Shown here piece after piece: positions 25,451 to 51,879 of a stretch of 64,000 nt of DNA (the stretch's first letter is position 1; each line of letters opens with the position of its first letter). The position numbers were made by a program, and so were the translations under genes. Source of the stretch: Rhodococcus oxybenzonivorans (GTDB taxonomy: Bacteria; Actinomycetota; Actinomycetes; Mycobacteriales; Mycobacteriaceae); the NCBI RefSeq assembly GCF_003130705.1, contig NZ_CP021354.1, positions 124,001-188,000 on the forward strand. The letters run 5' to 3'. Below the pieces are notes generated by a model. The model was given only the letters and a program-made list of their open reading frames with translations, was not told the DNA's origin and did no database searches.

Positions 25451-25611
25451 AGAGAAGTAGCGCCCGACTCCGCTCGCGGGCCCCTGGGTGATCACACCCC
25501 CGGGTCGTTGCCGGTCTCCTTCCCCGCACCGCGGACAGCTGTTAGTATTTTAAGAATTCATTTCAGTTTTAGTCTGGTGCACGCTTGTGACCAGGATATT
25601 TGGAGGCGTCG

Positions 25612-30632: not shown

Positions 30633-30642
30633 GGGCGAAATT

Positions 30643-31545: not shown

Positions 31546-31582
31546 ACGCGTCCGTTACCACTCACTCTTCGAAGGAATACCG

Positions 31583-32641
31583 ATGCCTTACAGCGCCGAT
31601 CTCGACATCCGGGTGACGGACTCGTCCCTGCGCGACGGTTCCCATGCCAAGCGGCACCAGTTCACCGTCGACCACGTCCGCTCCATCGTCGGGGCACTCG
31701 ATGCCGCCGGCGTTCCCGTCATCGAGGTCACCCACGGTGACGGGCTCGGCGGTTCCTCGTTCAACTACGGCTTCAGCCACACCCCGGAGCAGGAGCTGAT
31801 CAAGGCCGCAGTGGAGACGGCGAAGCAGGCCCAGATCGCGTTCCTCATGCTCCCCGGGCTGGGTGTCCAGTCCGACATCCGGGAGGCCGCCGACAACGGT
31901 GCGCGCATCTGCCGCATCGCGACCCACTGCACGGAGGCCGACATCTCCGTCCAGCACTTCGGGCTCGCCCGCGACCTCGGGCTCGAAACCGTCGGCTTCC
32001 TGATGATGTCGCACAGCCAGCCGCCCGAAGCGCTCGCGATGCAGGCCCGGATCATGGCCGACGCCGGCTGCCAATGCGTCTACGTGGTGGACTCGGCGGG
32101 TGCGCTCATCATGAACGGTGTCAGCGACCGGGTCGCCGCGCTGGTGTCCGAGCTGGGGGACGACGCACAGGTCGGCTTCCACGGACATGAGAACCTCGGC
32201 CTCGGCGTCGCCAACTCCGTGCTCGCCGTCGAAGCCGGCGCGTTGCAGATCGACGGGTCCACCCGGCGCTTCGGCGCAGGCGCGGGTAACACTCCGGTCG
32301 AGGCCTTCGCTGCCGTCACCGAGAAGCTCGGAATCCGCACCGGCATCGACACTCTGAAGATCATCGACGCCGCCGAGGACGTGGTGCGGCCGATCATGGA
32401 CGACGATTGCCTTCTCGACCGGCTGTCCCTCACGATGGGATACGCGGGCGTCTACTCGAGCTTCCTCAAGCACGCCGATGCGCACGCCCGCCGGTACGGG
32501 GTGTCCGGTGCGGAAATCCTCATCGAGGCCGGCCGCCGCAAATTGATCGGCGGGCAGGAGGACCAGCTGATCGAAATCGCGCTCGGTCTCGCGGACCGGC
32601 AGGCCGCGAGCGCCGCTGTTGCCGAGAAGAAGTCCGCCTAG
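31583..32641 (+). CDS. hsaF: 4-hydroxy-2-oxoacid aldolase
   Basis: A 352-residue DmpG/BphI-type aldolase. Metal/substrate region [20 protein letters not shown] at residues 12-31, [17 protein letters not shown], metal-binding histidines in [16 protein letters not shown] (about 200), and a C-terminal communication domain. It splits 4-hydroxy-2-oxohexanoate into pyruvate and propanal, which passes to HsaG. Preceded by TTCGAAGGAA and 37 bp from hsaG. Confidence 0.93.
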
Positions 32642-32681
32642 GCGCCTGACCGGGTGCCGAAACCAGAAAGCCGAGATCATC

Positions 32682-33860
32682 ATGGGTCAGGTTCTTGACA
32701 GGATCGAACAGTTCGCGGACGAACTCCGCGCGGAAGGCGCCGAAGGTGACAAGCTGATGCGCCTGTCGGACACCTCCGCCAAGCGGTTGCGCGACTCCGG
32801 GGTGATGCGGATGCTGCAACCCAAGGAGTACGGCGGCCACGAAGCCCATCCGCGCGAATTCGCGGAGACCGCGATGGGGATCGGTGCCATCGACGGCGCA
32901 GCCGGGTGGGTCAGCGGCATCGTCGGCGTCCACCCGTGGGAACTGGCGTTCTTCGACCGCAAGGCCCAGGACGAGGTGTGGGGCGCAGACCCCGACATGT
33001 GGATGGCCTCCCCGTACGCGCCGATGGGTGTCGCCGTGCCGACCGAGGGTGGCTACGTCCTCAACGGACGCTGGTCGTTCTCGTCGGGCACCGACCACTG
33101 CGGCTGGATCATGATCGGCGCCGCAGTCGGTGATGCCGACGGTAACCGGGTGATGCCGCCGAAGATCCTGCACGTGCTCCTGCCCCGCTCGGACTACGAC
33201 ATCGACCAGGACAGCTGGAACGTCGTGGGCCTGCGCGGCACCGGGTCGAAGGATCTGATCGTGAAGGACACGTTCATTCCGCAGCACCGGACGCTGCAGG
33301 CGGACAAGGTGTTCGACGGGTCCGCGCCGAAGGAGTTCGGACGTACCCAGACGCTCTACAACTTCCCGTTCTCGTGCATCTTCCCGCTCGGGATCACCTC
33401 CTCGCTGATCGGCATCGCCGAAGGCGCGCTGGCGTGCCACCTCAACGCGCAACGCGAACGCGTCACCGTCTCCGGCACCGCCATCAAAGAAGATCCATAC
33501 GTACTGTTCGCGATCGGCGAGGCGGCCGCGGAAATCGCGGCGTCCCGCGCAGCCGTTCTCGAGACGGTCGACCGGTTCTGGGACATGACGGAAAAGGGGC
33601 AGGACGTCACGTTCGAGCTGCGTGCCATCGGCAGGCGCACCCAGACAGCGGCCGCCTGGCGTGCGGTCCGAGCAGTCGACGAAATCTTCGCCCGCTCGGG
33701 CGGCGGTGCGCTGCAGCTCAGCACGCCGATGCAGCGATTCTGGCGCGACGCCCACGCCGGACTCTCCCACGCCATCCACGTGCCGGGGTCCATCTACCAC
33801 TCTTCCGCACTCACCCAGCTCGGCGGCGAACCGCAGGGTGTGCACCGCTCCATGATCTAG
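32682..33860 (+). CDS. hsaA: 3-HSA hydroxylase, oxygenase component
   Basis: A 392-residue flavin-dependent oxygenase with acyl-CoA dehydrogenase fold: RMLQPKEYGGHEAHPREFAE, GWVSGIVGVHPWELAFFDRK, NGRWSFSSGTDHCGW, GLRGTGSKDLIVKDTFIPQH and C-terminal RFWRDAHAGLSHAIHVPGS. With HsaB it hydroxylates 3-HSA at C4, giving the catechol 3,4-DHSA for HsaC. ATG 32682 is the first plausible start, 41 bp after hsaF. A second HsaA-like gene is at 61054. A large hairpin separates it from hsaC. Confidence 0.9.
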   Translation: MGQVLDRIEQFADELRAEGAEGDKLMRLSDTSAKRLRDSGVMRMLQPKEYGGHEAHPREFAETAMGIGAIDGAAGWVSGIVGVHPWELAFFDRKAQDEVWGADPDMWMASPYAPMGVAVPTEGGYVLNGRWSFSSGTDHCGWIMIGAAVGDADGNRVMPPKILHVLLPRSDYDIDQDSWNVVGLRGTGSKDLIVKDTFIPQHRTLQADKVFDGSAPKEFGRTQTLYNFPFSCIFPLGITSSLIGIAEGALACHLNAQRERVTVSGTAIKEDPYVLFAIGEAAAEIAASRAAVLETVDRFWDMTEKGQDVTFELRAIGRRTQTAAAWRAVRAVDEIFARSGGGALQLSTPMQRFWRDAHAGLSHAIHVPGSIYHSSALTQLGGEPQGVHRSMI

Positions 33861-33862
33861 GC

Positions 33863-33925
33863 GCTCCGCGCCCGTGAGTGGTTAAGGAGTCCAGAGACTC
33901 GTCAACCACTCACGGGTGGCGGAGC
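33863..33925 (+). terminator. Large hairpin inside the steroid operon (hsaA-hsaC)
   Basis: Three stacked arms: GCTCCGC/GCGGAGC (33863-33869 with 33919-33925), CCCGTGAGTGGTT/AACCACTCACGGG (33871-33883 with 33904-33916) and GAGTC/GACTC around a CAGA loop. It starts two bases after the hsaA stop and ends 23 bp before hsaC. It could terminate or attenuate read-through, or stabilise the upstream mRNA. Its inner arm resembles the terminator at 26508-26553. Confidence 0.8.
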
Positions 33926-33948
33926 CGCCCCCAGGAAAGGGATTCTCC

Positions 33949-34860
33949 ATGACAGACATTCGAGGACTCGGCTACCTCCGGATCCAGACGACGGACGTGC
34001 CGCGCTGGCGCGAGTTGGTGGTGGACGGGCTGGGCATGGCGGTGGGTTCCGGCCCCGAGCCGGACGGCCTGTACCTGCGACTCGACGAGCGGCGTGCCCG
34101 ACTGATCGTGCTGCCCGGCAAGAAGGACAAGGCTTTGGCCGTGGGGTGGGAGGTGCGCGACCAGTTCGCCCTGCAACGGGTGCGTGAGCAGGTCGAGAAG
34201 TCGGGTGTCGCCGTCGACGTTCTGTCCGAGGACGAGGCACGGTACCGCGATGCCGAGCAGGTCATCGCGTTCGACGACCCGTCCGGGACGCGGGTGGAAG
34301 TGTTCTTCGGGCCGGTTCTCGACCACAGTCCGGTGGTCACCCCCCACGGTGGCCGGTTCGTCACCGGCGCACAGGGGCTGGGACATGTGGTGCTCCCGAC
34401 CCCGGCGTTCGAGGAGGCCTACACGTTCTACACCGAGGTGCTCGGTTTCCTGCCGCGCGGTGCCATCCGCCTCGGGCCGCCCGACGCCCCCGGTCCCGCC
34501 CGCCGGGTCCGGTTCATGGGAGTCAATCAGCGCCACCACAGTCTCGCGCTTTGCCCGGCGCCGCACGGCGGCGAACCAGGCATGGTGCATCTGATGACGG
34601 AGGTCGACACCCTCGACGCCGTCGGCCAGGCGCTCGACCGGCTCGGCAAGCTAGGATTCTCGATCTCCTCGACACTGGGCCGCCACACGAATGATCGGAT
34701 GGTCTCGTTCTATGTGCGGGCTCCCGGCGGTTGGGACCTCGAGTTCGGCACCGAGGGCATGCTCGTGGACGAAACATATTACACCGCTGAGGAAATCACC
34801 GCCGACAGCTACTGGGGCCACGACTGGTCCGGGTCCGAACCACTGGCAGCGTTCTCATGA
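33949..34860 (+). CDS. hsaC: Extradiol dioxygenase (3,4-DHSA dioxygenase)
   Basis: A 303-residue two-domain type I extradiol dioxygenase. Iron ligands fit His in GLGHVVLPTPAFEEAY (about 143), His in NQRHHSLALCPAPHG (about 200-205) and Glu in GWDLEFGTEGMLVDET (about 265-280). It performs meta-cleavage of the ring-A catechol 3,4-DHSA to 4,9-DSHA. Preceded by CCAGGAAAGGG after the large hairpin. Its stop overlaps the ATG of the lipase gene. Confidence 0.92.
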   Translation: MTDIRGLGYLRIQTTDVPRWRELVVDGLGMAVGSGPEPDGLYLRLDERRARLIVLPGKKDKALAVGWEVRDQFALQRVREQVEKSGVAVDVLSEDEARYRDAEQVIAFDDPSGTRVEVFFGPVLDHSPVVTPHGGRFVTGAQGLGHVVLPTPAFEEAYTFYTEVLGFLPRGAIRLGPPDAPGPARRVRFMGVNQRHHSLALCPAPHGGEPGMVHLMTEVDTLDAVGQALDRLGKLGFSISSTLGRHTNDRMVSFYVRAPGGWDLEFGTEGMLVDETYYTAEEITADSYWGHDWSGSEPLAAFS

Positions 34861-37606: not shown

Positions 37607-38641
37607 TTAGTCGGTGATCACCTTGACCACGACCTTCCCTTTGTTCTCGCCGGCGAGACTGCGGTTGAGGGTATGTCTCGCATGCTCCAGACCGTCGACC
37701 ACGGTCTCCGCGGAGCGCAGCGTGCCGGCACTGAGAGCCAGCGACAGCTGTCCAATGATCTCTGCGTACCGATCCACGTGATCGAAAACGATGAACCCTC
37801 GCAAAGTTGCCCGCTGCATAAGCAGCTGACTGACATTACGTAGGCCGCGTTGGGCGTTATCTCCATTATAGTCGTTGTACTCGGAAACCAGCCCGCAGAG
37901 CGTGATTCGCGCCCCGATGTTCAGTCGGCCGAAAACGTGGTCCATGATCTCGCCGCCAACATTTTCGAAGTCCACGTCGATACCTTCAGGTGTGGCGTCG
38001 TCGAGTTGCTTCTGCCAGTCACCAGCATGTCGGTCAATACAAGCGTCGAACCCCAACTCCTCCACCAGGTATCGACATTTCTCGGCGCCACCTGCGATAC
38101 CGACCACTCGGGCACCCCGACGCTTTGCGAGCTGACCTGCAATAGAGCCCACTGCTCCGGCCGCGGCGGATACGAAGAAAGTCTCTCCCGGTCGAGGATC
38201 ACCGAACTCAACGCCGAGGTACGCCGATATTCCGGTGTGGCCCATGACTCCGACGAACGCGGGGAGGGGGGCCGGTAGCGGATCGGGTAGGACTGTGAAT
38301 GACATGTCCTCAGTCGCTGCATCAGCGACGCAATAGTCCTGCCAGCCCGTCAATCCCACAACAAACGAGCCGACAGGAAGATCGTCACGTCGGCTGGCGA
38401 CGACCCGTCCCACACCGGCCCCGCGCATGACGGCGTTCAATTCGACCGGGGGGATATAGGAACGCATCGCACTCATCCACACACGATTTGTGGGGTCGAC
38501 CGACAAGTAGTGCGTTCGGATCAGCGCTTGCCCATCAAGGATATCGGCAACCGGCTCTTCCAACCATTCTAAATTTTCGGCAGTTACTTCCCCCTCCGGA
38601 CGACTCCGCAATCGGTAGAGCCGGTTGGTCAAAGTACTCAT
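37607..38641 (-). CDS. NADPH-dependent MDR-family oxidoreductase (alkenal reductase-like)
   Basis: A 344-residue paralogue of the enzyme at 14222: LIRTHYLSVDPTNRVWMS, GVMGHTGISAYLGVEFG, cofactor motif SAAAGAVGSIAGQLAKRRGA, VGIAGGAEKC and C-terminal GENKGKVVVKV. Reduction of conjugated C=C bonds is the family activity. ATG 38641 follows AAGGAGATGTG. It is read from the minus-strand promoter at 38751-38789, one of four promoters with the shared dyad, so it belongs to the island regulon. Confidence 0.87.
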   Translation of the reverse strand: MSTLTNRLYRLRSRPEGEVTAENLEWLEEPVADILDGQALIRTHYLSVDPTNRVWMSAMRSYIPPVELNAVMRGAGVGRVVASRRDDLPVGSFVVGLTGWQDYCVADAATEDMSFTVLPDPLPAPLPAFVGVMGHTGISAYLGVEFGDPRPGETFFVSAAAGAVGSIAGQLAKRRGARVVGIAGGAEKCRYLVEELGFDACIDRHAGDWQKQLDDATPEGIDVDFENVGGEIMDHVFGRLNIGARITLCGLVSEYNDYNGDNAQRGLRNVSQLLMQRATLRGFIVFDHVDRYAEIIGQLSLALSAGTLRSAETVVDGLEHARHTLNRSLAGENKGKVVVKVITD

Positions 38642-38750
38642 CACATCTCCTTAAGGGGCGCATAAATGCCAAAGCGGAATGCCTCTCGAGCCCGCCGGAA
38701 TGCGGCTTCGCGGGCACTCTGTCCCGTCGCTCATTGGGCCGACCACCCTG

Positions 38751-38789
38751 AGATTAGACTCACAGTTGATCATAGTCAACACTCTGTCC
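38751..38789 (-). promoter_or_regulatory. Promoter with overlapping operator for the MDR gene
   Basis: On the minus strand TTGACT (38774-38779), 17-bp spacer, TAATCT (38751-38756). The dyad GACAGAGTGTTG overlaps the -35 box (the 15-mer GGACAGAGTGTTGAC is 38775-38789). Spacer end and -10 (ACTGTGAGTC-TAATCTCA) are identical to the cupin promoter at 42444-42482. Leader about 105 nt. Confidence 0.75.
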
Positions 38790-38821
38790 ACAGTGCGGTG
38801 GAGGGTCGGCCGAATAGCGTT

Positions 38822-38860
38822 CGACACACTGTTGACTATCACCGACAGGACGGGCATTCT
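38822..38860 (+). promoter_or_regulatory. Promoter with overlapping operator for the SnoaL-DUF3237 pair
   Basis: CGACACACTGTTGAC (38822-38836) contains the dyad CGACA-CAC-TGTTG... in the form shared with three other sites, with -35 TTGACT (38832-38837), 17-bp spacer and weak -10 CATTCT (38855-38860). It lies about 58 bp before the GTG at 38918. Confidence 0.65.
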
Positions 38861-38917
38861 TTGAGGCTACGGCGGCTGGCACATCAGTCGTCGCCAGAGC
38901 CCACCAAGGAGGCGACT

Positions 38918-39400
38918 GTGAGTACACAAGCGGAGAATCGCAAGGTAGTGAATGGTTTTTGGGGCGACCTCGATAGCGGGCCGCCGACCGGGAAAGAGCT
39001 GGAGGCTTGGAAAGACTGGTTCGCGGAAGATGCTGTTTGGGAGATGCCGTTCGCCCCTGAGCCGCTCGCGAAGTCGGTCCCCGGCCGCCAACTCATCGGC
39101 CACTTCATCGACTGGTTCTTCAAGTCCGTGCCCGACCTGAAGATCGACTCGCTGGTGGTGCACGACACGACAGATCCCGAGCTGTTTGTGCTCGAGCTAC
39201 ACGGAGAGGCGACCGTGAGGCAGAACGGAAACGTGTACGCGAACACGTACTGCACACACATGCGAATCAGAGGCGGCAAGGTGGTCTTGATTCGCGAATA
39301 CTTCGATCCAAATATCGTCGAACAAGCCTTCGGCGTCGAAGTCATTGCGGAGGGTATGTCCCATGTGATGGCAGCCGCAGGCCTGGAGGTAAGCAAGTGA
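38918..39400 (+). CDS. SnoaL-like (NTF2-fold) protein
   Basis: A 160-residue protein from GTG 38918, preceded by a perfect AAGGAGG at 38907-38913. The NTF2-like alpha+beta fold is indicated by WKDWFAEDAVWEMPFAPEP, GRQLIGHFIDWFFKSVPDLK and YCTHMRIRGGKVVLIREYFD. Members include hydratases, isomerases and small-molecule binding proteins; the conserved acidic residues of the pocket cannot be assigned confidently. The downstream DUF3237 gene overlaps its stop (GTGA), so the two work together. Confidence 0.82.
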   Translation: MSTQAENRKVVNGFWGDLDSGPPTGKELEAWKDWFAEDAVWEMPFAPEPLAKSVPGRQLIGHFIDWFFKSVPDLKIDSLVVHDTTDPELFVLELHGEATVRQNGNVYANTYCTHMRIRGGKVVLIREYFDPNIVEQAFGVEVIAEGMSHVMAAAGLEVSK

Positions 39401-39858
39401 AGCTCATCCCGGAATTTTCGTACACCGCAGAACTCGCTGCGCCGCAGGTCGTCGGTCCTGGGCCGTACGGCGTGCGGCAGGTCCTCCCCGTTACCGGCGG
39501 CACTGTAACGGGTGATCGACTGAGCGGTACAGCAGCCATCGGCGGCGGTGACTGGCTCCTGGCTGGAGATGACGGATTCGGACGGCTGGATGTGCGCGCA
39601 CAGTTCAATACCGACGACGGTGCCGTCATCTACATGAGCTACCAGGGCCTGGTTGAGGTGACCGAAGCCGCTGCAGCCGCCTTGACCGGCGGGGACTCGA
39701 GCACGAACTTCGGCGACCACTACTTTGTCACTACTCCGCGCCTCGAGTGCGGGGACGATAGGTACGGCTGGGTCAACCAGACTATCTTCGTGGGGCAAGG
39801 GCGAATTACACCCGGACCCGTCATCGAGTTTCAGGTCTTTCGCGTAGGCCTGCAGTAG
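39397..39858 (+). CDS. DUF3237 family protein
   Basis: A 153-residue beta-barrel protein: LIPEFSYTAELAAPQVVGPG, GTVTGDRLSGTAAIGGGDWL, DVRAQFNTDDGAVIYMSYQG, WVNQTIFVGQGRI. DUF3237 (UPF0311) proteins have no established activity but recur in catabolic clusters with SnoaL-like proteins and dehydrogenases, as here. GTG overlaps the preceding stop. A strong hairpin follows. Confidence 0.83.
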   Translation: MKLIPEFSYTAELAAPQVVGPGPYGVRQVLPVTGGTVTGDRLSGTAAIGGGDWLLAGDDGFGRLDVRAQFNTDDGAVIYMSYQGLVEVTEAAAAALTGGDSSTNFGDHYFVTTPRLECGDDRYGWVNQTIFVGQGRITPGPVIEFQVFRVGLQ

Positions 39859-39877
39859 GAGGAACCGGGACTGCAGC

Positions 39878-39921
39878 CGGCGGGCCGCACATCACATGTA
39901 AGTGTGAGGTGCGGCCCGCCG
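39878..39921 (+). terminator. Strong hairpin ending the SnoaL-DUF3237 operon
   Basis: CGGCGGGCCGCACATCACA (39878-39896) pairs with TGTGAGGTGCGGCCCGCCG (39903-39921) with one mismatch, a 19-bp stem with a 6-nt loop, 19 bp after the stop at 39858. Confidence 0.85.
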
Positions 39922-40034
39922 CTCTCGGGCGAAGTTGGAAAGCGTGGCATTGACCGCCAAGTAAGCCACGCCGCCTCTTAGCGAAACCGAGCCGCTGTGA
40001 TGGGTGATGACGGCGTAGCTAGTTGTTGCGGGTC

Positions 40035-40880
40035 ATGACGTTGTATTGGACGTCGACGGACTTGACTTGGCAGAAGCTGGCCAAGGAACTTGCGTCCGCC
40101 GATGTCTGTCTCGGCGTGTTCTCGCCGGTGCTCGGGAAGGGGGGCGCTGTACGAGCGTTCCGGCCATCTGAGCAAATTCAGTCAGGACATGTTCCCCGCC
40201 ATGCGCATGGACGGCGACGAGCTGATGCTGCGGCCAGCGAACTGTCCTCATCACGCGTTGATCTATGCATCGACTCAACACTCATATCGTGAACTGCCCC
40301 TTGGATTCAACGAGCTCGCCTCCATGTTCCGAGCCGACGTTCCGGTGTTGTATCTGGTTTGAGTCGCGTCCGGCAGATCAACCTCGACCACACTCACGTC
40401 TTCTGCAGACCGGACCGGGTCCTCCACTAAGCTGAACTTGGGCTGCGGGCAGCACTGCGTGCTCAGGAACTCTTGGGGCTTCCCGTCGATTAAGTCCGAC
40501 TGTCGACGAGAGACAACTCCTCGACATGGCTCGGCACCGAGGCCCAGAGGGAGCATGCCCAGGAGAACCTTCGCACCGCCGGGCAGTCTGTCCTTGACGA
40601 GCATGGACTGAAATTGGCCGAAGCCCCGGGTGAGGCTGCGTTTTACGCCCAAACTCGATCTACAGGTTCAGGACGAACGCGGCCGTGAGGAAACCACTGC
40701 CACCGTGCAACTCGACTTCAATCAGCCCCAACGATTCGGTCTCACCTATGTCGGCGCAGACGGCGGCGAACACCGCCCCGTCATGATCCACCGAGGAACG
40801 GTTGGGTCGATGGAGCGCGTCACTGCAGCACTGCTCGAACGGTATGCAGGCCGCCTCCCGTTCTGGACATTCTCGAGCTG
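40035..40880 (+). pseudogene. thrS: Degenerate threonyl-tRNA synthetase
   Basis: Scattered over several frames are segments of the class II catalytic core: ALYERSGHLSKFSQDMFPAM, RMDGDELMLRPANCPHHALI, SYRELPLGFNELASMFRA, then [108 protein letters not shown]. This order matches ThrRS. At least two in-frame stops and several indels are present, and both the N-terminal domains and the anticodon-binding domain are missing. An extra, decayed copy in an accessory region is unexpected. Confidence 0.85.
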
Positions 40881-40949
40881 ATGGATGACGCCTACCTCAA
40901 CCGCCGAACAGTCCTCGACTGGTCGATCTGAAGGGGCACACAGTCGCTC

Positions 40950-41259
40950 GGCGGTACCGGGCGTTCGATCGCGAGACGGCAGCCCAGCCACCTCTGCGTC
41001 AAAGCTGACGCCGACTCGTCGAAAGCTGCCGCACGCACCCAATCACCCACGTCGCTACCGAAATGGGCATCTCCCGTACCCGTCACCAGTTCATCCGGCC
41101 CTACACCCACAACACAATGGCAAGGTCGAGCGCTACAACCGGATTCTCCCCGAGGGGTTCCTCCACTCCCGCGACTGGATCAGCGAAACCCAACGACCAG
41201 AGGCCGTCGTCGTATGGAACGTCCGCTATAACTACCGTCGACCCCACGCTTCAGATCAC
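40950..41259 (+). pseudogene. IS481-family transposase with internal deletion
   Basis: N-terminal residues RRLVESCRTHPITHVATEMG (IS481 HTH region) run, after a deletion of the central part and a frame change, into the C-terminus: PALHPQHNGKVERYNRILPE, ISETQRPEAVVVWNVRYNYR, RPHASDHLAQQPRQP. The catalytic aspartates are lost and only the final E region remains. It abuts the stop codon of the hydrolase at 41260. Confidence 0.8.
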
Positions 41260-42198
41260 CTAGCGCAGCAACCTAGACAACCCTTCCGCGAAGCCAGTAA
41301 TAGCACGCTTTCCCTCATCCACCACGCCGGCTAGTAGAAAGAAGCTGTGAGGCATGCCCGCATACTCGCGCTGGACGACTGCAACGCCCGAAGCCTGCAA
41401 TTTAGATGCATATCGACTGGCATCATCTGAGACTGGGTCAATCTCTGCGTTGACGATGAGCGCAGGCGGGGCGTTGTTCAGATTCGTACTGAACAACGGC
41501 GAGACTTCCGGCGACTCCCGAAGCCCCACGTCGGGCACGTACTGATCGATACACCATTCGAGTGCGGCACGCGAAAGAAGAGGCGCCGACCCGTATCGGT
41601 TCACAGAGTCACTACTCGAGGTCAGATCCAGCACTGGGCACAGAAGCCCCTGCGCCTTGACCGATGCACCGTAAGTACGTGCACTGAGAATCGCTGCGGT
41701 CGCCGCAGCGAGCATCCCCCCAGAGGAGTCTCCAGCAACGGCCAGCGCCTCGCCATCAATTCTCAGCTCGTCAGAACGATCGGCTACCCAGCAAAAAGAT
41801 TCGATCGCATCTGCGTGAGCGCTTGGATAGGTGTTTTCGGGCGCAAGGCGATACGCCACCGAGATCACGCGGAGAGCGCCCTGGACGCTCAACTCGCGAC
41901 ACAGTCGGTCATGAGACTCGAGGCCGCCCCTGACGAAACCGCCACCGTGGAAGTACACGACACCCGGCATTGCTGTGGTTGCGCCTTTCGGAGAGTAACT
42001 CCGGGCCTTCACTACCCTTCCGCGGAGGGGAATCTCTAAGTCCCTCACATCGCAATGTGGATTGAGATCACCCGCCAAGCCGATCAACTTTTCGCCGACC
42101 GCCCTGTAAGCGGCGATGGATACTTCCCACGGCTGCGCCGGCGGGTTCGTTGACAGGGATGCCAGCAACTCGAGTACCTGAGGGTGCAGATTACTCAT
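41260..42198 (-). CDS. HSL-family alpha/beta hydrolase (esterase)
   Basis: A 312-residue hormone-sensitive-lipase-type esterase. Oxyanion motif VVYFHGGGFVRGG (about 78-90), nucleophile elbow VAGDSSGGMLAAAT with Ser near 152, acid residue in NAEIDPVSDD (about 250) and catalytic His in GMPHSFFLLAG (about 280). ATG 42198 (MSNLHPQVLELL) is preferred over the longer frame to 42327, because the divergent promoter region lies within that extension. It hydrolyses esters or lactones. Its 3' end borders IS481 debris. Confidence 0.87.
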   Translation of the reverse strand: MSNLHPQVLELLASLSTNPPAQPWEVSIAAYRAVGEKLIGLAGDLNPHCDVRDLEIPLRGRVVKARSYSPKGATTAMPGVVYFHGGGFVRGGLESHDRLCRELSVQGALRVISVAYRLAPENTYPSAHADAIESFCWVADRSDELRIDGEALAVAGDSSGGMLAAATAAILSARTYGASVKAQGLLCPVLDLTSSSDSVNRYGSAPLLSRAALEWCIDQYVPDVGLRESPEVSPLFSTNLNNAPPALIVNAEIDPVSDDASRYASKLQASGVAVVQREYAGMPHSFFLLAGVVDEGKRAITGFAEGLSRLLR

Positions 42199-42326
42199 GA
42201 ATGTCCTGCATAGATGTTCGTCGCGGCACCTACGCGCTCTCGTAGCGAACTCACCAGTCGTCTCCTCCACAGCCGCTGTCAGATGCGTACGACCCTCGAC
42301 TAGTCGGGGCACACGCCGGTGTGTCA

Positions 42327-42365
42327 ACTCTGCACTTAGCGTTGGCGTTCGTCAACATAGTGTCG
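42327..42365 (-). promoter_or_regulatory. Promoter with overlapping operator for the HSL hydrolase
   Basis: Minus-strand CGACACTATGTTGAC (42351-42365) holds the dyad CGACA-CTA-TGTTG merged with -35 TTGACG (42350-42355). A 17-bp spacer leads to a poor -10 CAGAGT (42327-42332), suggesting that it needs an activator or that the true -10 is offset. Confidence 0.55.
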
Positions 42366-42443
42366 AGTAATGCGCACCGGCGGTCTTCCCAGCACTGGCC
42401 CGCCCCGCTATCGCCAGCTCTGAGCTGCCGGTTTTCGATTAAC

Positions 42444-42482
42444 CGACATAGTGTTGACTCTTCTCGACTGTGAGTCTAATCT
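42444..42482 (+). promoter_or_regulatory. Promoter with overlapping operator for the cupin-dehydrogenase operon
   Basis: CGACATAGTGTTGAC (42444-42458) contains the dyad CGACA-TAG-TGTTG; TTGACT (42454-42459), 17-bp spacer, TAATCT (42477-42482), about 60 bp before the cupin ATG. The spacer-end and -10 sequence is identical to that at 38751-38789. Confidence 0.75.
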
Positions 42483-42541: not shown

Positions 42542-43105
42542 ATGGTCACGAAGTCCGATGTCGACCAGATTCAACCCACGACAAACCGAGACGGCGAGAG
42601 CTACGTCTCCCACCGCAGCGATGTGCATTTCAACATGACCGGCGACTTCATGACCGGTGTGGATTTCTGGATTCATGCGACCGGTGAAACCACCAATGGT
42701 CAGCTGATCATCATCGAGACCAACTGGGTCCGCGGAACCGAGCCGGTCTGGCACATCCATCACCGCGAAGAGGAAGGCTTCTTCGTGATGGACGGTGAAA
42801 TCAAGATCCACACCGAAGCCGGGTCCTACAATGCAGGAGCAGGTCAATTCGTGTGGGGGCGTAAGGATCAGCGGCATACCTACGAGGTAGTCGGAGAAGA
42901 GGCGAGGATTCTTGTGATCTTCGTTCCGGGTCCCGAGAGCAGCGGATTCGAACCTGGCGGCGGCATCGACAAGTACTTCTACGAAGCGCGCGATCGCGAA
43001 TTGCGCACTCCGGAACAGCTAGCCGCAGAGGTTGAGAATCTCAAGACGAACTATGGCTTGGAGATGTTCCCAGAGTTGCCGCACCCCCGGGACGCCAAAG
43101 CTTAA
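42542..43105 (+). CDS. Cupin-domain protein
   Basis: A 187-residue single-cupin protein. Cupin motif 1 reads EPVWHIHHREEEGFFVMDGE with two histidines and a glutamate placed as metal ligands (about 62-75); motif 2 with GAGQFVWGRKDQRHTYEVVG supplies the last histidine (about 110-115). Such proteins act as dioxygenases, isomerases or sugar/steroid-like binders; no substrate can be named. Preceded by CGAAAGGGACC. First gene of a run cupin-MMSDH-VOC-SDR under the shared promoter. Confidence 0.82.
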   Translation: MVTKSDVDQIQPTTNRDGESYVSHRSDVHFNMTGDFMTGVDFWIHATGETTNGQLIIIETNWVRGTEPVWHIHHREEEGFFVMDGEIKIHTEAGSYNAGAGQFVWGRKDQRHTYEVVGEEARILVIFVPGPESSGFEPGGGIDKYFYEARDRELRTPEQLAAEVENLKTNYGLEMFPELPHPRDAKA

Positions 43106-43152: not shown

Positions 43153-44661
43153 GTGACTACAAACGATGTCCATCTTGCAACGGTGCCGCACTGGATCGCT
43201 GGCGCCCCCTCCGGCTCGACGAACGGGCGGAGGTCGGAGGTTGTCGATCCAGCCACGGGTCACGTACTGAGGCTTGTTGAGCTGGGAGGCGCTGCTGTCG
43301 TCGACGCGGCTGTCACCAGCGCCCGAAGCGCTGCGGGGGCCTGGGCTTCGACCCCGGCCCCCGTCCGCGCGACCACTCTCCACCGCTTCCGCGCCCTGAT
43401 GCTTGAACACAGTGAAGAGCTTGCATCGATCATCACCTCGGAGCAGGGGAAAACCCTCGCAGACGCGAGAGGGGAGGTCGCCCGTTCTGTCGAAGCTGTC
43501 GAAGTTGCGATATCTGTAGTACAGCACCTCAAAGGTGAGTACGCAGAACAGGTCTCCAGAGGAGTCGACACATACTCGTTCCGCCAGCCGCTCGGAGTGT
43601 GTGCTGGTATCACCCCATTCAACTTCCCCATCATGGTGCCGGTGTCAATGTTCGCGGCTGCGATCGCCTGCGGTAACTCGTTCGTGCTCAAACCGAGCGA
43701 GAGGGTGCCATCCGCCTCGGTGCGGCTAGCGCAACTGCTCGCCGAAGCCGAGCTACCCGACGGTGTCTTCAACGTCGTGCACGGTGGCGTTGACGCGGTG
43801 AACGCGTTGATCGAACACCCGGACGTCGCTGCCATTTCCTTTGTGGGCTCCACGCCGGTTGCGCGTGAGATCTACAGCCGATCCGCCGCTGCCGGCAAGA
43901 AGGTTCAGGCACTGGGTGGAGCGAACAACCATATGGTCGTCATGCCTGACGCCGACCTGGACGCAGCGGCGGACGCGCTGGCGTCGGCTGCATACGGCGC
44001 CGCCGGTCAGCGATGCATGGCCGTGCCCATCGCGGTAGCGGTGGGAGAAGTCGCGGACGAGCTAGTTGCCAAGACCGCTGAGCGGGCCACAGCCTTCCGT
44101 ACCGGACCGGGGAATGTGGAAGGCACCGACATGGGGCCGCTCATCTCAGAGGTCGCCATCGAACGAGTCAGAGGTGCGTTGGAGGCGGCACCTAGCCAAG
44201 GCGCAAATGTCGTCGTAGACGGCCGTGTCAACCTAACGTCCGAGGCCGGCTATTTTATCGGCCCGAGCTTAGTCGACAACGTAAGCGTCGACAGCGACCT
44301 CTATCAGAAGGAGGTGTTCGGACCGATTCTGAGTGTGGTGCGCGTCGATGATCTCGACGAAGCACTTCGCATTGTGAACGCCAGCCCATATGGCAATGGT
44401 GCGACCATCTTCACCGCAAGTGGAGTGGCCGGTCGCCGGTTCGCTCACAGCGTCCAGGCCGGAAGCGTTGGGATCAACGTTCCCATTCCAGTTCCGATCT
44501 CTTGGTTCGGATTCGGAGGTTGGGGCGACTCGCGATTTGGCGATGACGGCCTCAACTACGATGCATATCGCTTCTACACCAAGTCCAAGGTGGTCACCCA
44601 ACGTTGGACTGAACCCCGAATGGGCGTGTCTCCTCATTTCGTCGCCGCGAGGCATCAATGA
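43153..44661 (+). CDS. Methylmalonate-semialdehyde dehydrogenase-like (CoA-acylating) ALDH
   Basis: A 502-residue aldehyde dehydrogenase from GTG 43153. ITPFNFPIMVPVSMFAAAIA (cofactor/active-site Asn), LKPSERVPSASVRLAQLLAE, ISFVGSTPVAREIYSRSAAA, and catalytic cysteine in AAYGAAGQRCMAVPIAVAVG near residue 286. Closest to MmsA, which converts methylmalonate semialdehyde plus CoA to propionyl-CoA without a separate ligase step. A related branched semialdehyde could be the substrate here. It is 47 bp after the cupin gene and overlaps the VOC gene by 4 bp. Confidence 0.9.
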   Translation: MTTNDVHLATVPHWIAGAPSGSTNGRRSEVVDPATGHVLRLVELGGAAVVDAAVTSARSAAGAWASTPAPVRATTLHRFRALMLEHSEELASIITSEQGKTLADARGEVARSVEAVEVAISVVQHLKGEYAEQVSRGVDTYSFRQPLGVCAGITPFNFPIMVPVSMFAAAIACGNSFVLKPSERVPSASVRLAQLLAEAELPDGVFNVVHGGVDAVNALIEHPDVAAISFVGSTPVAREIYSRSAAAGKKVQALGGANNHMVVMPDADLDAAADALASAAYGAAGQRCMAVPIAVAVGEVADELVAKTAERATAFRTGPGNVEGTDMGPLISEVAIERVRGALEAAPSQGANVVVDGRVNLTSEAGYFIGPSLVDNVSVDSDLYQKEVFGPILSVVRVDDLDEALRIVNASPYGNGATIFTASGVAGRRFAHSVQAGSVGINVPIPVPISWFGFGGWGDSRFGDDGLNYDAYRFYTKSKVVTQRWTEPRMGVSPHFVAARHQ

Positions 44662-45128
44662 CGATGATCAATCGCTCCCCATCCTCGCCTTCCGAAGATG
44701 CTCGGGAAGGAAGCGCTCCGCGGCTGGATCATGTGGGGATACTTGTCCGCGACCTCGAGTTGGCCACCACTCGTTGGCAGAGCAGATTCAACGTCAGCAT
44801 CGCGCATACTTTCGAGGCACCCTCTCTCGCCATCCGCGCGACGTTTCTCGCCATAGCGTCGGCCAATATCGAGCTGTACACCATCGACGATCCAAAGGTT
44901 CTCGATCTCGCGCTGGGCCGAGCCTCGGCAAAGCTCGACCACATTGCGTTGCGGTTCGACGGAAACGCGCGAGAGCTCGATCTCGCTGGATGCACGATCC
45001 GCGGGCCCGGACGACCGGACCCGATCGGAGCTCCTTTCCTCATCGCCGACTCAGAGCATGTATGGACGGAGCCACCTGGAATCGACGTACTGCTACAGCT
45101 CATAACCCCGACCGAAAGCACACTATAG
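44658..45128 (+). CDS. VOC-superfamily (glyoxalase/epimerase-like) protein
   Basis: A 156-residue protein with two betaalphabetabetabeta modules: APRLDHVGILVRDLELATTR (metal His at 17), AIASANIELYTID (Glu), KLDHIALRF (His) and GIDVLLQLI near the C-terminus. The pattern His-Glu-His fits methylmalonyl-CoA epimerase-type VOC enzymes, a suitable partner of the MMSDH whose stop it overlaps (ATGA). Racemisation or lyase chemistry on a CoA-ester is possible; not proven. Confidence 0.8.
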   Translation: MTMINRSPSSPSEDAREGSAPRLDHVGILVRDLELATTRWQSRFNVSIAHTFEAPSLAIRATFLAIASANIELYTIDDPKVLDLALGRASAKLDHIALRFDGNARELDLAGCTIRGPGRPDPIGAPFLIADSEHVWTEPPGIDVLLQLITPTESTL

Positions 45129-45301
45129 CGCTGCGAACGCTGCCTCCCGAGTGCCTTCCACCATTTGTGAATGTGGGGTGAGAAACCGGGACCAGAACTG
45201 CACCGCGAGTTGGCAATTCCATGTACACAAGCGGTCACCCGGTACGCCGATCGACCGGGAAGCACAACCAATCCGATTCACACTCACAAGAGGAGAGACC
45301 A

Positions 45302-46171
45302 ATGGGACGCATGGACGGAAAGGTCGCCCTGGTAACAGGTGCGGCACGTGGAATGGGACGGGCGCACGCAATCCGGCTCGCTGAGGAGGGCGCCAATATC
45401 CTCGCCATCGACTGTCCGCCGGACACCGGGCTCCCGTACCCGACCGGATCAGCTGATGACCTCCAGATCACAGTTAAAGAGGTAGAAGCACTGGGACGAC
45501 GAATCATTGCACACGAGGGAGATGTCCGGAAGCAGTCGTCGCTCGACAAACTGGTTGCTGATGGCGTCAAGGCATTCGGTGGTCTGGACGTTGCGGTCGC
45601 CAACGCCGGGATCTGGACCGTACACCCGTTCCACGATATCCCTGAAGACGAGTTCACAGCTGTTCTGGACGTCAATATCACCGGAGTGTGGCGCACCTTG
45701 AAGGCAGTGTCGCCGGCGATCAAGGAACGGGGCGGCGGTTCAATCATCGTTACCTCTTCCGGCAACGGCGTGGAGGGATCACCCCATTACGCCCACTATG
45801 TCGCGTCGAAGCACGGCGTTATAGGGCTGGCGAAAAGCGCTGCGCTCGAGTTCGGTCAGTACGGAATTCGAGTCAATATCTTGCTCCCAGGGCCGACTGA
45901 TACTCCAGCCCTCGACTGGCAGGGCGGATATGATCTCTGTGCAGGTAAAGGGCCCGGTCAGGGTGTGAAAGAAGACCTTGAAGGCGCGAAGTACTGGTCT
46001 ACCCTTCGCGATGTCGGGTTGCTCCCACCACGGGCCATGAGCGAAGCGGTGCTTTGGCTCGCGTCCGACGAGTCTCGTTGGACAACCGGACTCGAGATGC
46101 ACGTTGACGGTGGCCATATGCTTATGCCAGGACTGAATATGGCAAAGATGGCCGCCGATCAACCGCAGTAA
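45302..46171 (+). CDS. Mycofactocin-type SDR oxidoreductase
   Basis: A 289-residue SDR. Cofactor motif VALVTGAARGMGRAHAIRLA, then the insertion LAIDCPPDTGLPYPTGSADD and LQITVKEVEALGRRIIAHEG typical of the mycofactocin-coupled subfamily, NAGIW at about 100 and catalytic YVASK (HYVASKHGVIGLAKSAALEF) near 178. These enzymes hold NAD tightly and pass electrons to mycofactocin, so the reaction would be an alcohol oxidation that depends on the host's mft genes, which are not in this window. Start ATG after AGAGGAGAGACC. Confidence 0.87.
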   Translation: MGRMDGKVALVTGAARGMGRAHAIRLAEEGANILAIDCPPDTGLPYPTGSADDLQITVKEVEALGRRIIAHEGDVRKQSSLDKLVADGVKAFGGLDVAVANAGIWTVHPFHDIPEDEFTAVLDVNITGVWRTLKAVSPAIKERGGGSIIVTSSGNGVEGSPHYAHYVASKHGVIGLAKSAALEFGQYGIRVNILLPGPTDTPALDWQGGYDLCAGKGPGQGVKEDLEGAKYWSTLRDVGLLPPRAMSEAVLWLASDESRWTTGLEMHVDGGHMLMPGLNMAKMAADQPQ

Positions 46172-46315: not shown

Positions 46316-46990
46316 CTAATCGCTCTTCGAACGGCCTCTCCATTCCAAACCAAATACCGTTCTGAGCCACACTGTGGTGACCGTCTCAACCATGTCTTCG
46401 GTGCGAATTGCATTCTCGCTTCGCATGCTCATAAGTCCCAGGTTTCGTTCGCCCATCCACATTAGCGCTGCCGCCAGTGAACGAGCCGGTGGCCCATCAA
46501 TAGCCACACCCGTAGCTCTGTCGCGCTCGATCGCAGCGGCCGCGGCATCGATAAAGCGACCCAGTATTTTGTCCCACTGGGCCTGCAAAGTGGGTTCGGC
46601 CGCCGCTGCATCACCGACCTCGCGGAGTACATGTCCATGCCGCTCCCACACGACCATGACCTCCGACACTGCATGCTCAATGGCAGCCTCTGGAGAAATT
46701 CCAGGAGGTCGCTCGAAGATCATCGATGATGCAGTGAACACATCGGCAGTCACACTCGATAGAAGCGCCGAGAGAACCTGCCATTTAGATTCGAAATAGA
46801 AATAGAAGGATGAACGCGACAACCCCGCCCTCTTGGCAAGGTCGTCGATCGACACGTTTCGTAACGGCTCGGTGCGCAGAATCTCGTAAGCACCCTCGAG
46901 GATTGCTTGCTCGCGCATGTCACCCTTGAGATTGCGCCTACCAGTCCGAGGTTCGGATGCGTTGAGACCGTTTGAGAACGAAGTCGCCAT
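46316..46990 (-). CDS. TetR-family transcriptional regulator
   Basis: A 224-residue TetR regulator. HTH at residues about 28-70: REQAILEGAYEILRTEPLRN, VSIDDLAKRAGLSRSSFYFY, FESKWQVLSALLSS. The remaining helices form the ligand-binding and dimerisation domain. Convergent with the SDR gene and divergent from the acyl-CoA ligase at 47573. The palindromic operators C(G/A)ACAnnnTGTTG at four island promoters have the symmetry expected for a TetR dimer, making this the best candidate regulator, likely released by a CoA-ester (inference). Confidence 0.88.
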   Translation of the reverse strand: MATSFSNGLNASEPRTGRRNLKGDMREQAILEGAYEILRTEPLRNVSIDDLAKRAGLSRSSFYFYFESKWQVLSALLSSVTADVFTASSMIFERPPGISPEAAIEHAVSEVMVVWERHGHVLREVGDAAAAEPTLQAQWDKILGRFIDAAAAAIERDRATGVAIDGPPARSLAAALMWMGERNLGLMSMRSENAIRTEDMVETVTTVWLRTVFGLEWRGRSKSD

Positions 46991-47572
46991 GGCTACAGAC
47001 TAGGCTAGATCAACCTGCAAATGTAGCCGGGGGCATGACGTCCGTACACGATATGCACCGCAGCATCGCCCGAGACGGCCGCTCGGATTGCACGGCAGTT
47101 CGGTAAAACAATCGGGGCGAATTTCCAGGTACGTCTTGACCAAGTTGGCATGCCGATCCGACTTAATGTTCATGTAGCAAGTCGACGACTGGTGCGAAAT
47201 TGGTGACGCGGCACCCATTACGCGATTCGACCCACGTCAGCCCATGAGCCTTGCGTGCAGGGCTCGTGGCCCGCACGAGCGTCACCCATCGACGGCACAG
47301 CGCCACGTCGACCCTCCTCCCCGTTACATAGGCAAACATCTGGCTAAGTATCTCGACTGCACGTTGATCATACTCGACACATCGTCTATATTGTACGTAC
47401 GTGAACCGCGACGGGCAATGTTCATCGGCACGCCCGCGCAACCCGCTCGCGGGGTATCTCGTAACTCGTAATTCAGGTCGGTTCGCTCACTTGCGCGACG
47501 GTCCCTCATGTCCCGAAGCGCCGGCGCATCCGTAGCCTCCTGACGCCACGCCAATCCAGGAGAAGTCGTTCG
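46991..47572. other. 580-bp divergent intergenic region, no supported gene
   Basis: Between the TetR gene and the acyl-CoA ligase. It has lower GC content than the surroundings and no credible ORF. GGCTACA/TGTAGCC arms flank the TetR start region, and GTACGTAC occurs at 47393-47400. Contains the promoter described at 47364-47392. Confidence 0.5.
47364..47392 (+). promoter_or_regulatory. Sigma70-like promoter upstream of the acyl-CoA ligase
   Basis: TTGATC (47364-47369), 17-bp spacer, TATATT (47387-47392): the best -10 match in the window. The spacer contains CTCGACACATCG, half of the island dyad. The leader to ATG 47573 would be about 170 nt. Confidence 0.6.
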
Positions 47573-49090
47573 ATGTCATCAAATCTCGCAAACAATCTCG
47601 TCGAGACTGCTCGGCAACTAGGCGATCGACCCGCGATCCGGCTTGATGAAACCACCTTGAATTACTCAGAGTTCCACCGTGCCGCTGCGGCAGTGGCGGG
47701 CGACCTGCATTCGCGAGGTATTCGATCCGGCGATCGGGTCGGTATCGTACTGCCGAACGTCCCTGCGTTTCCGATCATCTTCTACGGGATTCTGATGGCG
47801 GGCGCCGTCGCAGTTCCGATCAACCCCATGCTCAAGGACCGGGAGATCACATATTACTTGGAAGACTCTGGGATGGCTCTCATCTATGGCTCGCGATCTC
47901 GCGGGGAGCTGGTTGCGAAAGCCGCACTAGCAAAGAAGATTCCCGCGCTCTTGGTCGACGACCGTGGTCCGAGTGACGCTGATCTGACCGGGAACCCGAT
48001 CAATGAACCTGTGGAGCGTAGCCGCGACGACACCGCAGTTCTTCTCTATACCTCTGGGACGACGGGAAGTCCTAAGGGAGCGGAACTCACTCACGAGAAT
48101 ATGTCGACCAATGCTTCGACGACTGCCGAGACTCTGATTCGAACCGGGCCCAATGACGTCATCTTGGGGTGCCTGCCACTGTTCCACGTGTTCGGCCTAA
48201 CCTGTGGACTGAATGCCGCGGTGAAGTCAGGAGCCCTCCTGACTCTGATCCCCAAGTTCGATGCGGAATCAGCCCTGCGTGTCCTGATTCGAGATGAGGT
48301 TACAGTCCTCGAAGGGGTCCCCACCATGTACTCCGCGATGCTCAACTCTCCTGACGCCGACTCCGCCGAGCTATCCCATCTCCGCTGCTGCATCGTAGGG
48401 GGAGCGCCGATGCCTGTCGAGGTCCTCAAAGCGTTCGAACGAAAGTTCGAATGCGAGATATACGAGGGGTACGGACTTTCTGAAACCGCACCCATTGCTT
48501 GCTTCAACCAACCCGGATACCCGCGCAAAGCTGGCACGATCGGGATTCCCGTGCGCGGATGCACGCTGCGACTAGTCGACGACGACGACAACGAAATTGT
48601 CGGCTGTGATGAGGCAGGAGAAATCCAAATCCGCGGTGAGAACGTGATGAAGGGATACTGGGCTCGTCCGGCTGCCACCGCGGAGGCCATAAGCGACGGC
48701 TGGTTCCGCACAGGAGACATCGCCACACGAGATAGCGATGGCTACTACAGCATCGTTGATCGAAAAAAGGACATCATTATTCGAGGTGGTTACAACGTGT
48801 ACCCACGCGAAGTGGAAGAGGTTTTGTACGAGCATCCAGCTGTTGCCGAGGCAGCTGTTATAGGTATCAAACACACGCATCTCGGGGAACAAATCGGAGC
48901 TGCCGTATCACTCAAACGCGGAGAGCAGGTCGAGCCGTCTGAGATAATCGAGTTCGTTCGCGCCAGGCTCGCCGCGTACAAGTACCCCCGGCAGATTTGG
49001 TTTGTCCCCAGCCTCCCAAAAGGACCGACCGGCAAAATTCTTCGCAGGCAAGTTGAGCCGCCCGCCGTAGTCTCTCAACAGTTGACGTAG
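47573..49090 (+). CDS. Acyl-CoA ligase (AMP-forming)
   Basis: A 505-residue ANL enzyme closely similar in layout to the ligase at 16482: [20 protein letters not shown] (about 162), [15 protein letters not shown] (about 300), [40 protein letters not shown] and C-terminal [12 protein letters not shown] with the catalytic lysine. It activates a carboxylate to its CoA ester and may feed the MMSDH/VOC enzymes. ATG is preceded by CCAGGAGAAG. The last gene of the island before the IS607-type element. Confidence 0.92.
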
Positions 49091-51560: not shown

Positions 51561-51879
51561 TCGACCGCAGCTGCGGGTCAGTATGGCGGGACGGGGTGGC
51601 GTGTCGATGTACCCTCCTCCGGCGGTTACCAGGCCACCCCGGTGTCCCCGCGAGTCGAGCTGCGCCGCGCCCCGCCCTGGATCGTTCTTTTGACCTGCTG
51701 GTCTTGGCGATCCTTATCGACGAAAGCCGGGGATCAACCCGCAGCTTCAACGTCCTGTCGGCCTTTCAGTCCTCACGACATCGAGGTGCGGCGTCGCCTA
51801 ACTCTGCGCGGGTCGAAGTTGGGACGAGTAACTTCGAGTGGGCAAACAATCGACACGGTTCGGCAATCCGAGGGCCTTC
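51561..51879. other. 319-bp gap without a recognisable gene
   Basis: Separates the truncated TnpB gene from the kinase gene. The open frames have no motif. The right end of the IS607-type element and the promoter of the kinase gene must lie here, but I cannot mark either. Confidence 0.4.

What the first reader, a model, noticed from the sequence alone, without database searches (positions are those of the whole stretch)
38751..42482. Four island promoters share a 13-bp dyad fused to the -35 box
Two divergent promoter regions (38.75-38.86 kb and 42.33-42.48 kb) contain four copies of the 15-mer SGACAnnnTGTTGAC: GGACAGAGTGTTGAC, CGACACACTGTTGAC, CGACATAGTGTTGAC and CGACACTATGTTGAC. The core C(G/A)ACA-N3-TGTTG is a dyad, and its right half is the start of the -35 hexamer TTGAC. 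Two of the promoters also share an identical spacer end and -10 (GTGAGTC-TAATCT). This indicates one regulator controlling MDR, SnoaL-DUF3237, HSL hydrolase and cupin-MMSDH genes. The TetR protein at 46316 is the best candidate.
Basis: partly seen in the sequence, partly recalled or inferred. Interest (0 to 1): 0.75.

Follow-up and report, generated by a model that had tools for sequence, protein, structure and literature searches.

The report
EthR-like repressor's tandem operator regulon
Five promoters of a gene cluster in a soil bacterium carry the same pair of likely repressor landing sites, of the kind used by the known repressor EthR, so one EthR-like switch probably controls the whole cluster.

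Summary
The four 15-mers are real, lie where stated and are not chance. Each is a 15-bp dyad (TCRACRNNNYGTYGA, at most one departure in the window) whose last four bases start the -35 box. A second, weaker copy lies 21 bp downstream, reaching the -10; the -35/-10 spacer is 17 bp in all five. The combined 38-bp pattern occurs in the 8.0-Mb genome only at these five promoters, even with one mismatch allowed. Of 397 genomes of the order it is repeated only in the five that also hold the TetR gene. In 20 loci not used to build the pattern, 56 of 59 matches lie within 220 bp upstream of a cluster gene; the other three are one opposite-strand reading and two at contig ends. The TetR protein is the genome's only EthR_C protein; 30 of 30 EthR-type loci examined carry the same dyad, spaced 20 bp, and the published EthR repeat fits it. 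Best reading: a new EthR-related TetR repressor of a catabolic regulon. Binding, repression and inducer are untested.

The parts
38776..38790 (-). O1 dyad of the MDR promoter (TGGACAGAGTGTTGA); -35 TTGACT at 38774-38779
   Evidence: conserved in 3 plasmids with changes
38751..38769 (-). O2 half-dyad 21 bp downstream (38755-38769) and -10 TAATCT (38751-38756) of the MDR promoter
38821..38835 (+). O1 dyad of the SnoaL-DUF3237 promoter (TCGACACACTGTTGA, perfect); -35 TTGACT at 38832-38837
38842..38860 (+). O2 (38842-38856, weak right half) and -10 CATTCT (38855-38860) of the SnoaL-DUF3237 promoter
42352..42366 (-). O1 dyad of the alpha/beta hydrolase (HSL) promoter (TCGACACTATGTTGA, perfect); -35 TTGACG at 42350-42355
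42327..42345 (-). O2 (42331-42345) and weak -10 CAGAGT (42327-42332) of the HSL promoter
42443..42457 (+). O1 dyad of the cupin-MMSDH-VOC-SDR promoter (CCGACATAGTGTTGA); -35 TTGACT at 42454-42459
42464..42482 (+). O2 (TCGACTGTGAGTCTA, 42464-42478) and -10 TAATCT (42477-42482) of the cupin promoter
47353..47367 (+).
   Evidence: conserved in 3 plasmids
47374..47392 (+). Fifth O2 (TCGACACATCGTCTA, 47374-47388) and -10 TATATT (47387-47392)
46316..46990 (-). TetR-family regulator, TetR_N + EthR_C; proposed repressor of the five promoters
37607..38644 (-). Medium-chain dehydrogenase/reductase (best NCBIfam match curcumin reductase, below that model's cut-off)
38918..39400 (+). SnoaL-like protein
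   Evidence: start as annotated in pRHL2
39397..39858 (+). DUF3237 protein
41260..42198 (-). Alpha/beta hydrolase of the hormone-sensitive-lipase type
42542..43105 (+). Cupin, first gene of a four-gene run
43153..44661 (+). CoA-acylating methylmalonate-semialdehyde-dehydrogenase family protein
   Evidence: TIGR01722 above cut-off
44658..45128 (+). VOC/glyoxalase-like protein (weak Pfam match, below cut-off)
45299..46171 (+). Mycofactocin-coupled SDR (among its best solved relatives: carveol dehydrogenases)
   Evidence: (TIGR03971 above cut-off)
47573..49090 (+). Acyl-CoA ligase (AMP-binding)

Best explanation
The protein at 46316-46990 is an EthR-related TetR repressor. As dimers it binds a 15-bp dyad (TCRACRNNNYGTYGA) that overlaps the -35 box, and a weaker copy two helical turns (21 bp) downstream that reaches the -10, at five promoters of one catabolic cluster (MDR; SnoaL-DUF3237; hydrolase; cupin-MMSDH-VOC-SDR; acyl-CoA ligase). 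Bound repressor covers the promoter and blocks RNA polymerase; a pathway-derived hydrophobic or CoA-linked ligand in the EthR_C pocket would release it and switch all five on together. Shown here, by sequence only: sites, spacing, promoter register, conservation, specificity, co-occurrence with the TetR gene, and sameness of dyad type with EthR operators. Inferred: that this TetR is the binder, that it represses, the two-dimer stoichiometry, and the inducer.
For: Five of five promoters share O1, an O2 at 21 bp and 17-bp-spaced -35/-10 boxes. Own genome, 38-bp pattern with up to 1 mismatch: 6 matches, all at the island (five promoters, one also read on the opposite strand); backwards control 1. 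397 genomes, exact: 31 matches, 26 in the 5 genomes with the cluster and 5 single matches in 5 others; backwards control 9 single hits. TetR relatives at E<=1e-45 in 5 of 397, the same 5 genomes, as is the cupin. 20 loci not used to build the pattern: 59 strict matches in 361,524 bp, 56 within 220 bp upstream of a cluster gene, 1 opposite-strand reading, 2 at contig ends; 19 of 20 loci have at least one; the TetR gene is in 24 of 24 loci. With O1 picked regardless of O2, the dyad score at other offsets is highest at +21 (mean 7.17 of 12; next 6.46 at +3 and 6.09 at -3, which overlap O1 itself) in 112 gene-upstream windows, some sharing a promoter. TetR: EthR_C 5.3e-24, best solved relative EthR 1.3e-25, sole EthR_C protein of the genome at E<=1e-8. 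30 of 30 EthR-type loci examined hold a perfect dyad, tandem at 20 bp; 0 of 16 loci of other EthR_C proteins, with different recognition helices, do. The published EthR repeat TCAACG(T/A)NATGTCGA (passage of PMC9210681) fits the dyad.
Against: No binding, footprint or expression data. O2 is degenerate (its right half is poor at the SnoaL promoter). The hydrolase -10 (CAGAGT) is weak. In the 20 held-out loci, leading genes without even a relaxed match in 260 bp upstream: ACS 9 of 14, MDR 5 of 17 (one of them, L133, cut off by the locus end), cupin 3 of 17, HSL 2 of 9, SnoaL 1 of 19, MMSDH 1 of 1, and tetR itself 17 of 17. L152 has no strict match, only one a base off. The held-out loci are not all independent: two are Nocardia carnea strains (a third was used to build the pattern) and three are Mycolicibacterium peregrinum. 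The regulator does not fall in the EthR clade, and TetR proteins can also activate.
Confidence: 0.86

Rival explanations
1. The dyads are bound by a different regulator of the cell (another TetR, MarR, GntR or the kinase-LuxR protein at 51838), and the TetR gene merely neighbours the cluster.
For: TetR binding is unshown; other regulators lie in the window (IclR 25600, kinase-LuxR 51838).
Against: The TetR gene is in 24 of 24 related loci and in exactly the 5 of 397 genomes with repeated operators. A kinase relative at 40% identity or more was seen in 1 of 24 loci (L149, 52%; some loci end too early to tell), besides the 3 plasmids. The dyad is of the EthR type and this is the genome's only EthR_C protein.
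Confidence: 0.07
2. The TetR is an activator (or dual regulator) that uses O1 as a site next to the -35.
For: TetR-family activators exist (FasR is called one in the abstract listed). O1 reaches upstream of the -35.
Against: O1 includes the -35 and O2 covers the spacer up to the -10 at each of the five promoters, which should keep polymerase off; most have fair consensus boxes at 17 bp; EthR is a repressor (reference title; passage).
Confidence: 0.06
3. The shared sequence is only a core promoter type (sigma-A with an extended -35) or recent duplication of one promoter.
For: Part of the motif is the -35 box itself; the MDR and cupin promoters share a block around O2 and the -10.
Against: The left half-dyad and O2 stay while flanks change, across five genera; the arrangement is absent from the rest of the 8.0-Mb genome.
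Confidence: 0.03

Closest known systems
EthR of Mycobacterium tuberculosis and its 55-bp ethA-ethR operator
   Same: TetR_N + EthR_C; similar recognition helix (SR-x-x-FYFYF); the published 15-bp repeat TCAACG(T/A)NATGTCGA fits the same dyad; repeats in tandem.
   Different: Separate clade (100/99 support); dyads 21 bp apart instead of the 20 bp seen in EthR-type loci, the second one degenerate; five dispersed promoters of a catabolic cluster instead of one ethA-ethR spacer.
KstR, KstR2 and BkaR of mycobacteria (named as palindrome binders in a passage of PMC4482099; their regulons recalled)
   Same: A TetR repressor with one palindrome at promoters of a catabolic gene set.
   Different: Other palindromes and other TetR subfamilies (recalled); here the operator is a 21-bp tandem.
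QacR/RolR-type operators bound by pairs of dimers (passages of PMC9210681, and PMC4482099)
   Same: Two dimers proposed on one operator.
   Different: Those operators span 28-29 bp; here two separate dyads have centres 21 bp apart.

Membership tests
TetR family | N-terminal TetR HTH | tested here: met
   PF00440 2.2e-11, residues 30-76
EthR_C subfamily (PF21313) | EthR-type C-terminal domain above cut-off | tested here: met
   85.1 bits against cut-off 27
EthR proper | Falls inside the EthR clade | tested here: not met
   Own clade 100/99, EthR-type clade 100/99, 36-row tree; some long branches meet
EthR proper | Gene adjacent to a Baeyer-Villiger monooxygenase (ethA) | tested here: not met
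   Neighbours are an SDR and an acyl-CoA ligase
EthR-type operator | 15-bp dyad TCRACRNNNYGTYGA, which the published EthR repeat fits | tested here: met
   2 of 5 window O1 sites perfect (12 of 12 positions), 3 of 5 with one departure; repeat
EthR-type operator | Tandem dyads at 20 bp | tested here: not met
   Spacing is 21 bp here; 20 bp in the 30 EthR-type loci
EthR-type repressor | Cooperative binding as an octamer | not testable with these tools
   Needs purified protein
Sigma-A-type promoter | TTGACA-like and TATAAT-like boxes 16-18 bp apart | tested here: met
   TTGA and, 17 bp on, YANNNT in 37 of 37 aligned promoters; GT(T/C)GA was required when sites were picked, the -10 was not

The most novel reading that the evidence does not exclude
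EthR-related repressors keep one ancestral dyad code and are told apart by the spacing of dyads (20 bp for EthR, 21 bp here). Mycolicibacterium species that hold both regulators would run two networks on one dyad; the catabolic regulon described here would then point to the kind of ligand and role that EthR, whose physiological role is unknown, originally had.
Probability: 0.25. Interest if true: 0.68.

Novelty: new member of a known kind. Interest (0 to 1): 0.5.

Why it matters
It gives a regulator, its probable operator and a five-promoter target list for an uncharacterised catabolic cluster found in Rhodococcus, Mycolicibacterium, Nocardia, Williamsia and Pseudonocardia. It also suggests that the EthR operator code is used outside ethA-ethR, by a paralogous repressor with a different dyad spacing, which makes the question of EthR's natural function approachable in harmless soil bacteria.

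Tried and rejected
Other 15-mer matches in the genome as further regulon members: 8 of 12 exact matches lie off the island, all in stop-free frames of 170 codons or more, and none has the O2/-10 arrangement. The looser tandem pattern gave 10 exact genome matches; the 5 that are not cluster promoters (one at window 5965, in the P450 open frame; one just left of the window) lie in stop-free frames of 392 codons or more and lack the 38-bp arrangement. A second motif-like hit left of the window (contig 123414) is also in an open frame. Autoregulation of tetR: no dyad of score 11 or more between its start and 47353 in the window (one of score 10 at 47297), and no strict or relaxed match facing tetR in 17 of 17 held-out loci where it leads; in L106-L108 the ligase O1 lies 67, 70 and 88 bp upstream of tetR, so autoregulation stays open. 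More distant EthR_C proteins as operator sharers: 0 of 16 loci had a perfect dyad. Viral contigs: no relative of the TetR. Pathway: attempts to name the substrate from solved relatives and papers gave no answer; the SDR resembles carveol dehydrogenases, so an alicyclic or terpenoid substrate is a guess. Structure prediction of the TetR had not finished after seven collecting calls and is not used.

Caveats on counts: the 38-bp pattern was built from the window, the three plasmids and L106-L109, so only its absence elsewhere and the 20 held-out loci are tests. The 37 promoters leave out two more sites with A at position 1 (cupin of L107, hydrolase of L109) that I saw in the printed sequence; the ligase of L109 has no such site. 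In 'leading' means no cluster gene on the same strand within 300 bp upstream. The 112 windows include genes that share a promoter and loci used to build the pattern. For EthR, 30 loci (the best-scoring of the EthR_C matches) were examined, not all; I call them EthR-type from domain score and recognition helix and did not check for ethA beside them. For other EthR_C proteins 16 loci were examined; the tree used 36 of the 71 rows then in hand.
Full report
What was checked. The window is bases 124001-188000 of contig C1 of an 8,014,224-base genome in four contigs. The stretch 36500-49200 matches three Rhodococcus plasmids at 92-94% identity over 83-89% of its length: pRHL2 of R. jostii RHA1, an unnamed plasmid of R. 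koreensis R85 and pRho-VOC14-L of R. opacus VOC-14. All four reported 15-mers are present at the stated places. The exact 15-mer is listed 12 times in the genome, 4 of them here; the other 8 lie in stop-free frames of 170 codons or more. With one mismatch allowed the 15-mer alone has 148 matches against 61 for the backwards control, so the 15-mer by itself is not a good genome-wide marker.

Anatomy. O1 is a 15-bp dyad, TCRACRNNNYGTYGA, whose last four bases (TTGA) start the -35 box. In the window two O1 sites are perfect and three depart at one position. A second, weaker dyad O2 (CRAC-N5-G) has its centre 21 bp downstream and runs into the -10; the -35 and -10 are 17 bp apart. A fifth set lies at 47353-47392 before the acyl-CoA ligase gene and was not in the finding. 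In 37 promoters from eight replicons or loci (window, L033-L035, L106-L109), A35 and T39 of the -10 never vary although nothing at these places was required when the sites were picked; G2, A3, C4, A24, C25 and G31 never vary either, but A3 and C4 were required throughout and A24, C25 and G31 for most. Two further sites, with A at position 1 (cupin of L107, hydrolase of L109), are not in the 37.

Conservation. In the three plasmids the spacers have changed and shifted while O1, O2 and the boxes largely stay. The MDR O1 has changes in all three plasmids and the hydrolase O1 varies most, but keeps CGAC-N5-GTTGA in all four replicons.

Specificity. The 38-bp pattern GACNNNNNGTTGAYNNNNNNNNACNNNNNGKSYANNNT, up to one mismatch, occurs in the own genome 6 times: the five promoters, one read on both strands; backwards control 1. 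In 397 genomes of the order, exact, it occurs 31 times: 26 in five genomes, all within the cluster, and once each in five others; the backwards control gave 9 single hits, none in the five cluster genomes. Relatives of the cupin (E<=1e-40) and of the TetR (E<=1e-45) occur in 5 of 397 genomes each, the own one included, and these are the same five.

Test on loci not used to build the pattern. A scan of the genome-contig collection with the cupin alignment gave 24 loci; four of these (L132, L134, L135, L141) are genomes already used. In the other 20 (361,524 bp) there are 59 strict matches: 56 within 220 bp upstream of a cluster gene (SnoaL 18, cupin 14, MDR 11, hydrolase 5, ligase 4, DUF3237 4), 1 opposite-strand reading of such a site, and 2 at contig ends with no cluster gene left downstream. 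19 of 20 loci have at least one strict match; L152 has none, but a site one base off stands before its SnoaL gene. Shuffles of single bases of the same DNA gave none in 20 rounds. Gene order differs between genera, yet operators go with leading genes; in the Nocardia loci the ligase lies behind SnoaL-DUF3237 and has no match of its own. Against full coverage: leading genes without even a relaxed match are ACS 9 of 14, MDR 5 of 17 (one cut off by the locus end), cupin 3 of 17, hydrolase 2 of 9, SnoaL 1 of 19, MMSDH 1 of 1 and tetR 17 of 17. Five of the 20 loci are strains of two species (Nocardia carnea, of which another strain was used to build the pattern, and Mycolicibacterium peregrinum).

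The regulator. The protein at 46316-46990 has TetR_N and EthR_C domains; its best solved relative is EthR (1.3e-25). It is the only EthR_C protein of the genome at E<=1e-8. The TetR gene is in 24 of 24 cluster loci. In 30 EthR-type loci of other genomes (best-scoring EthR_C matches) the same dyad occurs perfectly at least once in 30 of 30 (26 of 30 twice), against none in 5 rounds of shuffles, mostly at a spacing of 20 bp. In 16 loci of other EthR_C proteins, whose recognition helices read differently (for example RSAFYFYFENK), no perfect dyad occurs. A passage in PMC9210681 (seen by term search) gives the published EthR operator: a 55-bp stretch bound by an octamer, with the direct repeat TCAACG(T/A)NATGTCGA. 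That repeat fits the dyad at every position. A 36-row tree puts the present regulators in their own clade (100/99) beside, not inside, the EthR-type clade (100/99); some joining branches are long.

Spacing. Choosing O1 by its own score only, the mean dyad score at other offsets is highest at +21 (7.17 of 12); most offsets lie between 2 and 5, and the next highest are 6.46 at +3 and 6.09 at -3, which overlap O1 itself (112 gene-upstream windows, some sharing a promoter). For EthR-type loci the peaks are at -20 and +20 (9.36 and 9.0; 56 perfect dyads). Genomes G249 and G289 hold both kinds of regulator, with 20-bp spacing at their EthR-type loci L098 and L095.

How it most likely works. Two repressor dimers sit side by side on the same face of the DNA, one over the -35 and one over the spacer and edge of the -10, and shut the promoter. 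A ligand made from the substrate of the pathway frees all five promoters together. The enzymes (acyl-CoA ligase, mycofactocin-coupled SDR akin to carveol dehydrogenases, CoA-acylating aldehyde dehydrogenase, hydrolase, MDR, cupin, SnoaL, DUF3237) suggest an alicyclic or terpenoid substrate, but this is a guess. Binding, repression and inducer are inferred.

What is known. No description of this cluster's regulator or operator appeared in the listings of searches of the open-licence library (some searches were no help either); most subscription papers are not held, and the EthR operator paper of 2004 was seen only through the passage and reference lists. PMC4482099 (passages) says that EthR's physiological role remains unknown and that its motif is larger and more complex than a plain palindrome.

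Verdict. It is a new member of a known kind: an EthR-related TetR repressor with its regulon. The 21-bp against 20-bp spacing on one dyad code is the most interesting part.

Noticed in passing
window 40000-41334: Between DUF3237 and the hydrolase lies a broken-up insert holding a class II tRNA-synthetase core fragment (Pfam tRNA-synt_2b, below cut-off; by eye threonyl-type) and an integrase-core fragment (rve_3); most of it is not found in the three plasmids, and the R. koreensis plasmid has only about 230 bp there.
   Followed up: partly
L106-L109, L132-L155: The cluster is rearranged from genus to genus (ligase moved, DUF3237 moved or apparently duplicated, MDR moved) while operators stay with leading genes.
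   Followed up: partly
L071-L100: EthR-type loci of several unnamed genera carry two to three tandem dyads, mostly at 20 bp: a clean operator consensus across genera.
   Followed up: yes
window 51838-55158: A 1106-residue protein with kinase, NB-ARC-like and LuxR-type DNA-binding parts follows the cluster in the window and in the three Rhodococcus plasmids.
   Followed up: no
window 29847-34860: A meta-cleavage-type aromatic or steroid-ring catabolic gene set (hydratase, acylating dehydrogenase, aldolase, monooxygenase, dioxygenase; named by eye from the translations); an IclR regulator lies at 25600.
   Followed up: no
window 38712-38725: Another GGACAGAGTG stretch lies downstream of the MDR -10 on the minus strand; only partly kept in the plasmids.
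   Followed up: no
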